From Blastocystis hominis (lineage: Eukaryota; Sar; Bigyra; Opalinata; Blastocystidae): DNA of 64,000 nt. This document shows, one piece after another, positions 18,706 through 64,000 of this stretch. Position 1 is the first letter of the stretch. Every line of letters begins with the position of its first letter. A program made the position numbers and the translations under genes. The notes below the pieces were generated by a model. That model saw only the letters and a list, made by a program, of their open reading frames with translations. It did not search any database and was not told the DNA's origin. Location: the NCBI RefSeq assembly GCF_000151665.1, contig NW_013171828.1, forward strand, positions 251,469 through 315,468, given 5' to 3'.

Positions 18706-18741
18706 TAAACAAACAAACAAACAAACAAACAAACAAACAAA
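18706..18741. repeat. (AAAC)n microsatellite
   Basis: About nine AAAC units. It contains the reverse complement of TGTTTGTT by chance and is not taken as a gene end. Confidence 0.95.
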
Positions 18742-40082: not shown

Positions 40083-40138
40083 TAAAAAATGTTGAAGAAA
40101 CCTAAAGACATTATTCTTCTTCTTCCGCGATTATTGCT

Positions 40139-40146
40139 AACAAACA
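40139..40146 (-). terminator. TGTTTGTT 3'-end motif of TACC gene
   Basis: Minus strand, 25 nt after the TGA at 40172. Confidence 0.65.
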
Positions 40147-40171
40147 TACTTTAATTTGACATGTTTTTTCC

Positions 40172-43100
40172 TCACCGGCGCAGCAACTTCTCCACGTATG
40201 ACATCAGCTCTGCGACCTGTCCTTCCTTGGCACCCAATTCCTTCTACACCTCCCATCCCCTCCATCTCTCCCACCTTCAGCGACTGAATCTGCTCCGCCT
40301 GGAACTGCAGCTGCTTCGCCACATTCGTTCCCGACGGTCCTTCCTCCTCCCTCTCCATCATCGCCGATTCGATCTTCGCTGTCTGCAACTGGCTTCGCAG
40401 CGAGGCCAGCTGCTCTTCATACTGTTTCTGCATCGCGTCCATCCGCTCCTGCAGACTCGCACTGAACGATTCGAACTGCGCCTGCGCCTGTTTCGCCTGG
40501 TCCCCCAGCACGTCATTCTGCCGCTCAATTTCCCCGCCAATTTTCCACTTTGTGCATCAAATTGTGTACCGCCAGAGTCAAGCCCTGCTTCTCCTGCTCC
40601 AGCCGCGCGATTTCCTCCTCTCGCTGCCTCACCGCTTCCTGCTGCGCACTCAGCTCCTTTCGCGCCTCTTCCAGCGTCTTCCCCGCGGTTTCCGCCTGGA
40701 TCTGCGACGCTCCCGCGGTTCGCGCGGCCTCCTCGATCTGCCCGCGCAGCCGCGTCTGCTGCTGCTTCTCGTCCTCGATGAGTCTTCGATAGAGTTCGAT
40801 TCGCTGCGCGTATTCGCTTTCGAGCGTCTTCTGCGTCTGTTCGCGTTGATTCAATTCGTCTTTGGCGCTCTGCAGCGCACACTGCGCGCCTCTAGAGAGC
40901 ATCGACGTGAGTTCTGAGGGCTACGATAACGTCTCGCGGAGCTGCGCCAGCTCTGCGTTTCTGTGCTCGATTTCGAGTTTGGCGTCGCGCGTCTGCTGCT
41001 GCGCGGCGTGGAGCGCGAGCTGCGATTTCAAGAAATGAAAGAGAGCTACGTTGACGGAGTCCAGCTGCCGTTTGCTGAGAATGAGCTGGTCCTGGAGGGA
41101 CTTGAGCTCGATCTGGCTGTTGGAAACCACTTCGTTCATCGCGGTTTTCCACTGGGCTTCCTTGTTGGTGATCGCTTCCTCGACGATCTTGGGAATCGTC
41201 TGGTCGTATTCGTTCAGCACCTGGAACATTCGCTCGTTCTCCGCTTCCAGCTGCACGCGAAGCTTCCGCAACTCCGTCTAGTGGTGACGTTCTCAGCGCG
41301 CACTACGACTTGGCTCTCTGTTTTCTTCAGAGAATCGGTGAGTAACGCGATCACTTTCTCGCTCTCCGCTTTGGCCGCCAATTCCACGCGTTTGCGCTCG
41401 ATTATCAAGTCGGACTCGGTGTATTTCGGCTTCTCGCTGGTGAGGCGCGTGATGAGCGACGGCGGGATGGGGACGGAGGAGTAGTAGAGAAGGGAGTGCG
41501 AGGGCGTCGGGGAATCGGAGGTCCGGAGGTCGAAGAGGGCGCTCTGGCGGCGATTGGCGGCGTGGAGTTGGCGGATTTGTTGGAGGGGCTGCGAAGAAGA
41601 GGAGGGAGAAAGGGAGGGAGAAAGGGAGGGAGAGGGAGAAAGGAAGGAGTCGTTGGATGGATTGGATGGATTGGGAGGGAGCGAGGACACGGTTTGCTCC
41701 ACGATGGTTTGCAACTCGGAGGAGAGAGTTGGGTCAATGGGAGCAGTGGATTCAATAGGGACAGTGGAATCAATGGGGACATTCGATTCAATAGGGACAT
41801 TCGATTCAATGGGGACATTAGATTCAATGGGGACATTGGATTCAATTGGCTCAGCTGATTCACAATGAATGATTGGTTCGATGGTGTGAGTTTCTCCCAA
41901 TTGCTTGTGGGATTTATTCATTTGATTTGACTCTTCCACTTCATTTGATTCAATGTGATGTTCTTCTTCTTCCATTGAAGCATTCACTTCTTCAAGAACC
42001 TTCGAATCATTTACATCATTCGAATCGTTTGAATCATTTCCATCCAATTGAACATCTTCCTGTGGAACATCAGCAGATTTCGTGTCGATCTCCACTTCCA
42101 TGAGCTCGTTCGACTCAATAGGGATTTCTAATTCTTCCTGCTTGATTTCATTCTGATCGATGGGCTCAATAGGTTCATTCGGCTCAATGATGACTTTCGA
42201 TTCGATTGGTTCATTGGAGTCCACACGATTGTTCGACTCCTCAACAGTATTCAGCTCATTGGAAAAATCTTCTTCCGTCAAATCATTTGATTTTACAACA
42301 ATATTGGATTTCTCATTCACATTGGATTCGACGGACTTGATAGATTCAATAGGTTTATTCGATTGGTCTGGTTCAACGGAATCAACAACATTATCATTTG
42401 ATTCAGCGAGCTCATTCATTTGATTCACAATATCTGACTCTTTTGGTTCACTCGATTCTTTGAGTTCCTTTGTGTCAACAAGATCGCTTGATTCCGGATT
42501 CATTTCTTCCTTCGATTCATTCAACTCCTTCCGAGTCTCCAATTCTTTTTCACTCTTTGCTTCGTGTTGTTCATTTGTTTCATTCCGTTGATTCATTTCC
42601 ACAGAAATCTCATCCACTGCTTCCCTATTCAATGACTCACATCCCTTCATTTCCCCTTCATTTTCATTTTCATTGAATTCCTTTCCTTCTTCCTTCGATT
42701 CATCCGTTTGTTTTGATTCTTCCACCATTTCCTTCGAATTCTCTTCGAACTCTTCTGCCTTATTCACACTTTCCTTTTCAATCTTCTCAGCTTCTTCTTC
42801 TTCTTCCATCCTTTCCTCCTCTTTCTCTGCCCTCTCCAAAATAGCCGCATTTTCCGGAATTCCAAACAGATCTTCATTCTTTGATATCTCATTGATTTTA
42901 CTTTCCTGTTGATTCTTTTCGGATTTCTTTTCGACCTCCTCCTTAGTTTCATACTCTTTTTCACTCTTTATTATGATTGGAGGTATTACAGTTCCCTCCC
43001 CAGACTCAGCAGCTTTACTCTCTTCTTTCTTTGCAATTTCCCCATTTGAATCATTCAGTGCAACTCGCTTATCACTAAATATCTCTATCTCAGGCTCAGA

Positions 43101-50354: not shown

Positions 50355-50415
50355 GAAATACTCACTCAGCTCAAACCCAAAACTACGGCGTCACATCGCA
50401 GAAGTGTGTGTTATC

Positions 50416-50423
50416 AACAAACA
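50416..50423 (-). terminator. TGTTTGTT overlapping the encoded stop of the SANT gene
   Basis: Minus-strand TGTTTGTT at 50423-50416; the first in-frame stop (TGA, 50416-50414) shares its first base with the last base of the motif. Confidence 0.6.
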
Positions 50424-51340
50424 AGATAATAATCGTGAATATTGAAATCTGGATCCACAAAATCAGGGTCGAGTCCTCGCTGTCTTCGACTCTGTCTCTT
50501 CGGCATATTCGAGAAATCGAAGTTTAAAACATCGTCATCGGTTGAGTCATCCATGTCATCACTATATGTGTACTTTCTTCTCTTCTTGGAGGATAATCGG
50601 CGACGCTTCAAGGAACCCTTTCTCTAAGAAAACAAGAAAAAGGGATACGTCTGAGCCGTTTTGGCGAACTTGAAGAGCCGAGCGGAGCATGGCTAATCGA
50701 GAGAGCAACTGCTGACGCTCAAGTTGTTGGTTTGTGCGTTTATCAAACACCTCGCTGGTTTGTTTTTCGGTAAGTACGGGAATCACAACGCGGTCAATCT
50801 CTTCCTGGGACAAGCCATACTTCCTTAGGTTATATTCGCGCTTTTCTTTAATTTCCTCGGTGGTCATATTATCTACGCCTCGTTCCCAATGAAGAAACTC
50901 ACGTCCATCATTAATTATGATGCCATTCTTTCTGCACACGCCCGTGCGTTTTGCATTTTCCCTTCCGATCACACACACGTCCACGTGCAGTTTTAGAAAT
51001 TCTACCAAGTCAAAACCCCTCTCACCACAAAAAACCTTTCAGAGACTGCTGTCCGATCATTCGCTGCACCTGGCAAACAATCTGGGACACTGTCTTTCCA
51101 GGCAATACCTTCAGAGTCGTTAGTTGCTTCCAGCAACCAATTCCATACTTCATGATCGAACAGCGAAGTACTTCGGCCTCCTGCTTTGTCCATCCTATTC
51201 AGTGGAAATATCAAAAGATGGATACCTGGAGCGAATGTGACATTCCACAAGGACTTGCTATCCGATCCAAAGATTTTGGTGATACGATCTACTCATCATT
51301 GCCTTGCAGAGAGTGCCACTCTTTGACATTTCACTCGGAC
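50417..51340 (-). CDS. SANT/Myb-like nuclear protein
   Basis: Exons with introns of 35, 31, 34, 30 and 25 nt read EWHSLQGNDDKSLWNV, then a SANT/Myb repeat with the expected Trp spacing (WTKQEAEVLRCSIMKYGIGC, WKQLTTLKVLPGKTVSQIVC) and QVQRMIGQQSLKEFLKLHVD. Then come TGVCRKNGIIINDG, MTTEEIKEKREYNLRKYGLS and a coiled segment. After a 25-nt intron a basic tail (KRRRLSSKKRRK, a nuclear localisation signal) and an acidic patch (DDMDDSTDDD) end NIHDYY before the 3' motif. The family looks like chromatin or transcription SANT proteins but no specific name is offered. The first exon and start codon were not resolved. Confidence 0.65.
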
Positions 51341-59648: not shown

Positions 59649-62600
59649 TCAATAATGAACTGGAACAACTTCAACTCTAATCTCATTATCGACATCATTA
59701 GATTCATTATTGAGCGGTAGAACTTCAATATCAGAATCAACAATATCGAACATTCTTTCTTCATTCTCAACATTGACAACAATAGGTTCTCTTCTAGGTT
59801 CCACATTAACTGGTATCACTTCATCATCTGAATCAGATTTTCCTATTACTCTTTCTCTCTTATTCTTAGTATTGACAACAAGGAATTCTCTTCTAGGTTC
59901 CATATTAACTGGCGTCACTTGAGGAAGAGAAGAAGATCTCTCAGATATTCTTTCTTCTCCCCTGTCAGCATCGACATTAATAGGCTTTTTTATAGGTTCC
60001 ACTCTGTGTTCTGGTTTCACACGAACAGGTTCTAGTTTACGCACAGTACGATTTAAGGAGAGATGATTTTGATTTTTTGTAGAATTTTGTGGTTTTGTTT
60101 TCAAATACTTTTTTTCTCGTCCATGAATTACCTTTTGAAGACTAATACTCGCTTTTTTACATAGATTAATTATAATTAAAACAATACTAAAAAGAACTAT
60201 AAGCGCAGCAATAACAATAACATGGATCAAATTATGAGATATGCAGAATCCATTGATTTCGCCCCATTCTCCATCCTTTTCTCCAAGTACACAAGCTCTT
60301 GTTTTTTCTCCTATATACCGTCCATTCCATGAGCATTGATAAACATAAACATCACCAACGTTTGTGGCTTCAAAGATTCCGTCAGCTTCGCATCTTCCTT
60401 TTCTAACAGTCATTGTGATAGTTGTAGAAATATAACCGACCTGATTCTTTCCATAGATCGTGATCCTTCTTTCATAACATGTTTCAGTTGGTACTCCAGT
60501 GATTTCTCCATTCTTAGAATTCAATGATAATCCAGCAGGAAGAACCATTTCATAACCCAAATAAAACTCTTCGATAATGTTACTATGAGTTGGAGCTTTA
60601 ATACGAACTTCCTTATCTAAGATAAATTCATACACACTATTTTCATAATGTAAATTAGCGGGCGGCTTTAGTTTACAATACTCAGAGTGAATTTCTCCCA
60701 ATTGGCCGTTCGAGCAAATACGATATTTGTTTCCATAATATCCACTTTCACATTCACCCAAAGAATACTCTCCTTCTCTAGCAGAGGCATAACCATCAAT
60801 TCCAGGACAAACGTCCGTTCCATTAGATTTGCAGTACAAGAGCATATACGAACTCACATACACATTGTCCGATGCTGGAATATCCACTTGAAACTTGATT
60901 TGTCTGAATCCAAATGTTCCCCGAGGAATCGACCAACTACTTCGTCCCAGTTCCTTTACAGTTTCGTTGGTAACTACCAGTATATTATCAAAAATAGAGG
61001 AGGTAACCTTCATGGCAAACAGAGAAAATCCATAATGGTCTCTATTATACACAGTCTGCATACCAAAAGCATTGAATCGAGTTCCTTCCAAATTATCTAC
61101 TTTCCAATCAAGAAATGTTCCCACAGAATTTGGTTGATATCCATAGATTGTAGGATTCAAATCAAGCAATGTATCGAAGGTTCCCATAAAAGGACTCGTT
61201 CCAATAATTGATGAATAACTATCCAATACAATCGAACATTCATTTACTCCAAATACTCCACTGGCATCAAACACAACATTATGAGAGCATGAACTACTCA
61301 AACAACAGACTTCAAATGCTATTATGTTCTTTCCGCTCACTCCTCCAACAATGCTTAGAATCACATGAAACTTTGAGAATTTTGTTCCACTATATTGAGA
61401 AATGGATAATGCTTCTAAATCGAAATTCTCATTCAGATTGAATCGAGCGACCACCCTGCCATTGAAATATGCAATGATGCCTCCTTCATACTTCACAAGA
61501 ATATTCAACACTTGATAAATGTCAATATCAGGAAGATCCACTTCTTTGCGAAGGTAGGTTATGATTCTTTCGTTTTTTCCAATTGCAGCCGCTTTCTTCG
61601 ACACCCATTCAGAATCATCAAAACTTACGGTATTCCAATTCTCCACATATTCGTAACTGATCTTCCATTCAGTATATTCCATCTGGAATGGCAAATAGGA
61701 AGAGAACATCGTACTTACAGAAGCCACCCCGCTGGGAACCTGACCCATTTCAAAGATCATCTCACCCTTTTCAACAGTGAGATAATAACCAGCAGGATTC
61801 GACCAACCATCACCAGCAGAATCGAATAGTTCTAGAGTGTAGATTCCATTCTCTAAACAAATGTCTACATAGTTCAGAGAAGTAGACAACTCAAAATGAT
61901 CATTCGATCTTATTACAGATCCACTTGTCCCAATTCCTTGATAGAGTTTGTAGGAGGATTGCTCAGGAAACTCATCTGTACGAACCACCAGACTGATTAA
62001 CCCACGACTTTCTGTGCAAACCTCGACAGTAATAGAGAAGGTAGCTGTGGAAGTACCTCCAGTTAGCTTATTGGCAGTGATTGAATAAGTGGTAGTTCCC
62101 ATCTCATTCCTTGGAGTTCCAGAAATAATGCCAATGTTAGGATCGAAAGTAATTCCATCAGGTAGAGCAGAACTGATCTGGAAATTGTAGTAATATTCGG
62201 AGTTAGGATACAGTATATCCATAATATAATCCTTGGGAATTACGATAGAATTATATTCGAGTTCGGGAATTGTCATCGATGTATCTATCGAATTCAAGTT
62301 TATGGTATTCAGTTTCCATCCACACTTCGAATTATCACCTGTTGCAAAGTCCTCAAAACGGTATTCATGATATGCTATGCTGTTGGCAAAATAGATTGTG
62401 CGTGACCCGCCAATTTGACTCCAAGTAAGATCAAATACAGTAGTCAAAACTGTCCAATCATCATTTCCACTTCGAGCCTTCAATACAAACTCATGTGGTT
62501 GTTGATCATTCTGCGTGTAGTACAATTTGAGAGTCACAGAGTTGATCCATTCATGACGATCATTATTGAAAGCGATATTCAAATAGTTTTCAGTACAGGT

Positions 62601-64000
62601 TGATGAATAAATAGAAGAATCATAATATTGAGTAAATATAGATGAAGAATCACCATTGATTCCACTGTAACTAACTGCATAGTCAAAAACACGAGATTCA
62701 GTTTCGTCACTCATCAATCGAAGAGCACAATCGAAGATTGCTTCTTTCTGGTTTGCATCGGCAGCAACGATTCCAATAGCAATGGTATTCAATCCTTGCT
62801 GAATATAATTCACAGCAAGAGTATTTCCAATTTGAACCGTCTTGATAGGAAGGGAAACTTGACGATATATAGCAGATGAGTAGCTGTTGTTATCCGAATA
62901 ACTCGAAGTAGTGATCGTGGCATCCGTCAAGCCCTTTCTATATGCTTCATGTCCATTCAAATAGACAATGCATCCATACTTGAACTTCAGAGAAAGAACG
63001 AATCCAATCGAATTGTTCATATCCAAAATAGAAAATGTCCTCTTGTACAGCTGAATCTGATTGGACGAATCGGGAAAATTGCTTTCATTTCCTTCGTTCC
63101 ATCCTTCAGTGGAAGTCGATGAATACCAATCTGCTGGAATTGTTCCAAGCTTGTAATACCAGTTAGAACGAGGATGAATAGTGTATCGAGCATTGAAAGT
63201 ACGAGTTGCAGCAGAACCACTTCTCATATCATATCTCATACGAAGAATCGTTTCCATTTCATTACCATACAGATAAGAATATATGTATAAATAAGATTCT
63301 AGATACCAAGAATCAGTAGTGGATCCAAGCGCCACTTCATACTTCGATCCACTGACACAAACATTTGTTGTCTAGTCTTCATTATTCGTCTGAATCGAAT
63401 TGAAAGCAATAGACATAACCACTTCCTGAGTCAAAGCATCCTTGATTTCGAAACTCTCATAAGCAGCATTAAATTTGTAAGTACGAAGAATATGAAGCAT
63501 TGTACCAGCACATTCTTGAACTGTAAGAATAAACGATCCAGTGTATGTTCTGCCACTCATAGTCGATGTTACAGTAATCGTCTGGTTTGACACAACGACA
63601 TTCGCAAATCCAGAAATCACACAAGTGGAAGAATCGATTGTAAGACCTTCAGGAAGGTTTTCCGCTGAACATGAAGAGAATCCATCGAGATCAGGTTGAA
63701 TATGTACCTCTTCGTATTTTGCCCAAATAGTGTAATTGTTAGGAGTGAAAGTGATTGAAGGAGGAATTGATACGTGACAAATCATAGGATGCAATTCATA
63801 TGCCGTTACATAAGTAGAATTAACACTACTAGCAATTCGGACACGATAGTGGTTAAATAAAGAAGCTTGGTAATAGCCAGTAAACCAGCCGAACACTTCG
63901 CCATCATACGATGCATTTTCAATACTAATCACATCCATCCATTCCGAATTGTCATTCGATCCTTGCCAATAGACTTCACTTGGTGCTGATAAAATCGATG
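59649..64000 (-). CDS. Large cell-surface protein with putative-Ig domains (5' partial, in-frame stop)
   Basis: Intronless frame running off the right edge. It is open from 64000 to 63375, then an in-frame TAG (63372-63374), then the same frame open for 1228 codons to 59649. It has several putative-Ig (He_PIG) type modules (LPDGITFDPNIGIISGTP, LPAGLSLNSKNGEITGVP, LPEGLTIDSSTCVISG) and jelly-roll-like sections with INGxxV patterns (GGIIAYFNGRVVARFNL). Cys-rich units before the membrane (CESGYYGNKYRICSNGQLG, CSWNGRYIGEKTRACV) resemble sushi or hormone-receptor modules. One membrane segment (VIVIAALIVLFSIVLIIINL) and a cytoplasmic tail with VNVEPRREPIVVNV-like repeats follow. Type I topology is likely. 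The TAG means a pseudogene, an allele, readthrough or an error. Confidence 0.6.

What the first reader, a model, noticed from the sequence alone, without database searches (positions are those of the whole stretch)
50414..50430. Encoded stop codon collides with the polyadenylation motif: a stop probably made by poly(A)
In the SANT gene the frame ends ...GAT TAT TAT CTT GTT TGT TGA, and the only encoded stop shares a base with the TGTTTGTT motif. In Blastocystis, cleavage is known to occur just before TGTTTGTT, and the poly(A) tail completes UAA or UGA. Cleavage after any T or TA of the two TAT codons would give UAA here, and the encoded TGA would never reach the mRNA.
Basis: partly seen in the sequence, partly recalled or inferred. 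Interest (0 to 1): 0.75.

Follow-up and report, generated by a model that had tools for sequence, protein, structure and literature searches.

The report
Stop codon completed by poly(A) tail
In this gut protist gene the DNA probably does not supply the stop codon that is used: the RNA is cut after a single U and the added poly(A) tail turns it into UAA, a trick already known in Blastocystis, and relatives of the gene fit the same reading.

Summary
The window lies in an 18.7 Mb assembly, very probably Blastocystis subtype 7. Published ESTs there put the poly(A) site exactly four nucleotides before the motif in about 96% of 2,419 genes (PMC4159000). Here that gives GAT TAT T|AA: UAA after residue 251, with the encoded TGA absent from the mRNA. 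Relatives agree. Of 20 fetched proteins that cover the C-terminus, 9 run past it; in 8 of those 9 the first place whose residues permit the motif is the place that makes a stop. One relative, 97% identical over 30 residues, lacks the TGA. The collision of stop and motif looks like chance: GA follows the motif equally often with or without T at the cleavage place (397 of 4298; 278 of 3006). This is a new, well-supported instance of a published mechanism; no transcript was available.

The parts
50428..51329 (-). SANT/Myb-like gene, ATG to predicted last templated base (T at 50428). Exons 51329-51286, 51257-51226, 51194-51036, 51001-50903, 50872-50649, 50623-50428; 251 aa with the poly(A)-made stop
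   Evidence: gene model; relatives; Pfam
50873..50902 (-). 30-nt in-frame intron, recognised because P0001 and P0002 lack its residues
50426..50428 (-). Tyr codon TAT predicted to become UAA: last templated base 50428, then the tail
   Evidence: 4-nt rule of PMC4159000 applied
50416..50423 (-). TGTTTGTT polyadenylation motif, starting at codon position 3
50411..50416 (-). encoded in-frame TGA TAA, predicted not to be in the mRNA; the T of TGA is the last base of the motif

Best explanation
The transcript of this SANT/Myb-like gene is cleaved four nucleotides upstream of UGUUUGUU, after the first U of the second of two Tyr codons (50428). The poly(A) tail supplies AA and makes UAA. The protein is 251 aa, ends ...DPDFNIHDY and has no 3'UTR. 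The encoded TGA and TAA lie in the discarded downstream RNA. They overlap the motif because, when cleavage is after T at codon position 1, the last T of the motif is also at codon position 1, so any GA, AA or AG that follows reads as a stop. Shown here: sequence, frame, gene model, motif, phase, agreement of relatives. Taken from print: the 4-nt rule and the mechanism. Inferred: the actual cleavage in this gene.
For: Gap 4 gives T|AA. In subtype 7, 2,333 of 2,419 genes have the motif exactly 4 nt after the poly(A) site (PMC4159000). Of 20 fetched proteins that cover the C-terminus, 9 run past it, and in 8 of these 9 the first place that permits the motif (at most one mismatch) makes a stop; the same test passes at 26 of 12,158 positions of 69 proteins, true sites included. 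P0064, 29 of 30 residues identical, lacks the encoded TGA. P0037 reads NDF then W M C L L, which allows TG|G ATG TGTTTGTT and so a poly(A)-made UGA, where P0002, P0058 and P0066 end at NDF. Predicted ends, 13-14 residues after RQRGL (window 14), match the 10-14 of nine records that end by themselves. Mutating the motif and two upstream Ts in a reporter 3'UTR cut expression 324-fold (PMC6395660).
Against: No transcript of this gene was seen. The DNA of the relatives was not seen, only residues, and they are related, so they are not independent tests. P0056 needs two mismatches in the motif. Some read-through relatives permit further weak motif matches downstream, stop-making or not. A single open frame meets the rule by chance fairly often: 22 of 81 frames open for 30 codons or more. 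P0001 ends one residue before the end predicted for its close kin P0059, unexplained. P0055 ends one codon earlier, at HD.
Confidence: 0.88

Rival explanations
1. The encoded TGA is used: TGTTTGTT at 50423-50416 is not the cleavage signal of this gene and the mRNA ends further downstream; the protein is 255 aa, ...HDYYLVC.
For: An in-frame TGA followed by TAA is present. About 4% of genes in print depart from the exact rule.
Against: The nearest further minus-strand motif with at most one mismatch is TTTTTGTT at 50192-50185, more than 220 bases on. P0064 lacks the TGA and would gain 47 residues after HDY. Nine records end 10-14 residues after RQRGL, against 18 for this reading.
Confidence: 0.07
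2. Cleavage is shifted two or three bases upstream (50430/50431), so the first TAT becomes UAA and the protein ends ...NIHD.
For: Gaps 6 and 7 also give UAA; relative P0055 ends at HD.
Against: PMC4159000 gives gap 4 in about 96% of genes and 3 or 5 in part of the rest; 6 or 7 are not mentioned. P0063 ends at HDY.
Confidence: 0.03
3. The encoded TGA TAA directly behind the motif is a selected fail-safe stop for transcripts that escape cleavage.
For: Two in-frame stops sit directly behind the motif.
Against: Genome-wide, GA after the motif is independent of T at the cleavage place: 397 of 4298 (9.2%) against 278 of 3006 (9.2%); these counts include all sites, not only genes with poly(A)-made stops. 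The stop is not kept in P0064.
Confidence: 0.02

Closest known systems
Polyadenylation-created termination codons of Blastocystis nuclear genes (Klimes et al. 2014, PMC4159000; Gentekaki et al. 2017, PMC5608401)
   Same: Same genus, very probably the same subtype; TGTTTGTT four nucleotides after the predicted site; T|AA makes UAA; no encoded stop at or before the site
   Different: Here an encoded in-frame stop overlaps the motif, which can mislead annotation; no transcript evidence for this gene was seen
Encoded UAG/UGA turned into UAA by polyadenylation in Blastocystis (90 genes in PMC4159000)
   Same: The tail supplies the A's of the final UAA
   Different: There a stop is encoded at the cleavage codon; here that codon is TAT, Tyr
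PAY*, Tyr-to-stop conversion in mammals (as described in the introduction of PMC4159000)
   Same: A Tyr codon UAU becomes UAA through cleavage and polyadenylation
   Different: PAY* makes an alternative truncated isoform; here it is predicted to be the ordinary 3' end
UAA completed by polyadenylation in mammalian mitochondria (as described in PMC4159000)
   Same: U or UA completed to UAA, no 3'UTR
   Different: Organelle genes; here a nuclear-type gene with introns and a downstream GU-rich motif

Membership tests
Blastocystis polyadenylation-created termination codons | Coding frame runs to the poly(A) place with no encoded in-frame stop | tested here: met
   first in-frame stop is the TGA at 50416-50414, downstream of the predicted site at 50428
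Blastocystis polyadenylation-created termination codons | TGTTTGTT (up to two substitutions) four nucleotides after the site | tested here: inconclusive
   exact motif present at 50423-50416, and a 4-nt gap makes a stop; the real site is not known
Blastocystis polyadenylation-created termination codons | Last templated base(s) are T, TA or TG in the right codon position | tested here: met
   T at codon position 1 under the 4-nt rule
Blastocystis polyadenylation-created termination codons | Shortened protein fits its homologues | tested here: met
   predicted end 14 residues after RQRGL; nine self-ending relatives 10-14; two more (P0009, P0033) only 3
Blastocystis polyadenylation-created termination codons | Transcript with the tail at that base | not testable with these tools
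   no ESTs or RNA reads at hand
Encoded UAG/UGA turned into UAA | A stop encoded at the cleavage codon | tested here: not met
   the cleavage codon is TAT
PAY* alternative isoform | A longer main isoform with an encoded stop also exists | not testable with these tools
   needs transcripts

The most novel reading that the evidence does not exclude
At one gene, relatives within Blastocystis have moved among three states, an encoded stop, a poly(A)-made UAA from T|, and a poly(A)-made UGA from TG| (P0037), while the protein end stays nearly fixed. The motif, not the encoded stop, would then be the conserved terminator, and encoded stops would come and go almost neutrally.
Probability: 0.5. Interest if true: 0.45.

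Novelty: new member of a known kind. Interest (0 to 1): 0.3.

Why it matters
It adds one gene with comparative support to a mechanism shown so far mainly by ESTs and RNA-Seq, and shows that read-through ORFs in public protein collections can test it without transcripts. It also warns that an encoded in-frame stop beside the motif, which a gene finder would accept, is not evidence that it is used: by the 4-nt rule the protein would then carry four false residues.

Tried and rejected
Counting open frames that run into exact motifs in 264 kb was too blunt: codon scores were weak and short introns break frames. Among the 8 listed frames (open for at least 40 codons) with score at least 10, 6 make a stop by the rule, 1 has an encoded TAG at the place and 1 makes none; the cut-off was chosen after seeing the table, so I do not lean on it.

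A look-alike at 40146 (minus), TGT TAG overlapping the motif, was rejected as a case: with a 31-nt GT..AG intron (40274-40244) removed, the frame ends at an encoded TGA, 40174-40172, 25 bases before the motif.

Scans for related loci in viral contigs and genome contigs confirmed none, so the DNA of relatives could not be read. Selection for a fail-safe stop was tested and found no support. P0065, which stops before the C-terminal motif, was dropped; P0009 and P0033, which end 3 residues after it, are counted among the eleven that do not run past. Whether a short-contig record ends at an encoded stop or at the contig end is not known.

Full report
What is there. The finding lies at the 3' end of a minus-strand gene. 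The last codons are GAT TAT TAT CTT GTT TGT TGA TAA, with TGTTTGTT at 50423-50416 and the TGA at 50416-50414. A gene model with five short GT..AG introns (25-34 nt) from ATG 51329 gives 255 aa to the encoded TGA. One intron (50902-50873) is in frame and was recognised only because relatives P0001 and P0002 lack its residues. The protein has a weak Myb-like match, PF00249, 22.4 bits against a cut-off of 24.4; PF00249 is also precomputed on relatives such as P0001.

Organism. The window is part of an 18,707,701-bp, 40-contig assembly. The named Blastocystis relatives, Nand II, NMH, subtype 4 and Blastoise, are 68, 66, 69 and 45% identical, so it is none of those. Subtype 7 (18.8 Mb in print) is the natural reading but is inferred. 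The motif count, 7304 with overlaps, is of the order of the 6,732 (3,329 + 3,403) printed for subtype 7 (PMC5608401, passages).

The rule and its result. I read parts 1 and 2 of 3 of PMC4159000, that is, the text up to the acknowledgments. In subtype 7, 2,333 of 2,419 genes have the motif (up to two substitutions) exactly four nucleotides after the poly(A) site; the rest have more substitutions and/or a distance of three or five; 372 genes get their stop from the tail (359 UAA, 13 UGA). Applied here, the last templated base is 50428, the first T of the second TAT, and the tail makes UAA after residue 251. Gaps 3, 4, 6 and 7 give UAA; gaps 0, 1, 2, 5 and 8 give a nonstop message.

Relatives. 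Two searches with C-terminal alignments brought ORFs, mostly without names, from metagenome sources. Many look mechanically called: they read on to the next encoded stop and so show what the DNA encodes past the real end. Of the 69 proteins fetched, 20 cover the C-terminal end (plus P0069, which starts just after RQRGL). Nine run past it: P0037, P0054, P0056, P0057, P0059, P0060, P0062, P0064, P0069. Eleven do not: nine end 10-14 residues after RQRGL, and P0009 and P0033 end 3 after it. Back-translating the residues after RQRGL, in 8 of the 9 the first place that permits TGTTTGTT with at most one mismatch is a place at which the 4-nt rule makes a stop; P0056, a sibling of P0057 that diverges from it just past the end, needs two mismatches there, and its first place with at most one lies further on and makes no stop. 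Five of these eight permit further weak matches downstream, two of which (P0064, P0059) could also make a stop and the others not. The eight fall into five sequence types: YAVCE, CIICL, SAVCV, SLVWL, WMCLL. The first four use T|, the last TG|. The same test passes at 26 of 12,158 positions in 69 proteins, true sites included. The predicted ends lie 13-14 residues after RQRGL. The DNA of the relatives was not seen, and the records are related, so the eight are not independent.

Two relatives are most telling. P0064, identical at 29 of 30 residues up to this point, has YAVCEKSQ where the window has YLVC and then the TGA: the encoded stop is absent there. P0037 has NDF followed by Trp, Met, Cys, Leu, Leu. 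Trp and Met have one codon each, so the DNA is TGG ATG TGY then two Leu codons, which allows TGTTTGTT four nucleotides after TG and so a UGA; P0002, P0058 and P0066 end at NDF.

The collision. If cleavage is after T at codon position 1, the last T of the motif is also at codon position 1, so GA, AA or AG behind the motif always reads as a stop. Genome-wide, GA follows the motif in 397 of 4298 sites with T at the cleavage place and in 278 of 3006 without (the second pair by subtraction; overlapping tandem copies counted; all sites, not only genes of this class). AA or AG follow in 261 of the 4298. So the overlap is ordinary and shows no sign of selection.

Against. No transcript was available. 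A lone frame meets the rule by chance fairly often: 22 of 81 frames open for 30 codons or more. P0001, whose source name says partial, ends one residue before the end predicted for its close kin P0059; I have no explanation. 'Partial' would fit the absence of an encoded stop but can have other causes. P0055 ends one codon earlier, at HD.

Function of the motif. In a reporter assay, mutating the motif and two upstream Ts in the legumain 3'UTR lowered expression 324-fold (PMC6395660, passages). A 2026 annotation paper lists missing encoded stops in Blastocystis as a cause of merged gene models (PMC12817076, passages).

Novelty. The mechanism is published. My literature searches (listings of 7 of 7, 6 of 6, 3 of 3 and 20 of 110 papers) showed no title about this gene; none of them searched for the gene itself. 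The comparative series at one gene, with encoded stop, UAA and UGA states, is the part I would put forward, at moderate confidence.

Noticed in passing
40137-40174, minus strand: A second TGTTTGTT overlapped by an apparent stop (TGT TAG). With a 31-nt intron removed the gene ends at an encoded TGA 40174-40172, so it is not a case; it shows that the overlap arises by chance.
   Followed up: yes
whole genome, positions -5 and -4 before TGTTTGTT: G stands at -4 in 1573 of 4298 sites with T at -5 but in 717 of 3006 without: a mild U|G preference at the predicted cleavage place.
   Followed up: partly
264 kb of contig C14 (200 kb fetched plus the window), 91 motifs: A is enriched 10-13 bases after the motif start (0.45, 0.40, 0.51, 0.46 against 0.27 overall) and T is common just before it (0.58), perhaps a wider signal than the eight-base motif.
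   Followed up: no
18708-18739, minus strand: Seven overlapping TGTTTGTT copies form a TGTT microsatellite, which inflates motif counts.
   Followed up: no
P0001 (Blastocystis Nand II): Named partial by its source and one residue shorter than the end that the 4-nt rule predicts for its close kin P0059.
   Followed up: partly
59652-63371, minus strand: A 1240-codon open frame with putative Ig domains (He_PIG, PF05345, E 1.4e-16).
   Followed up: no
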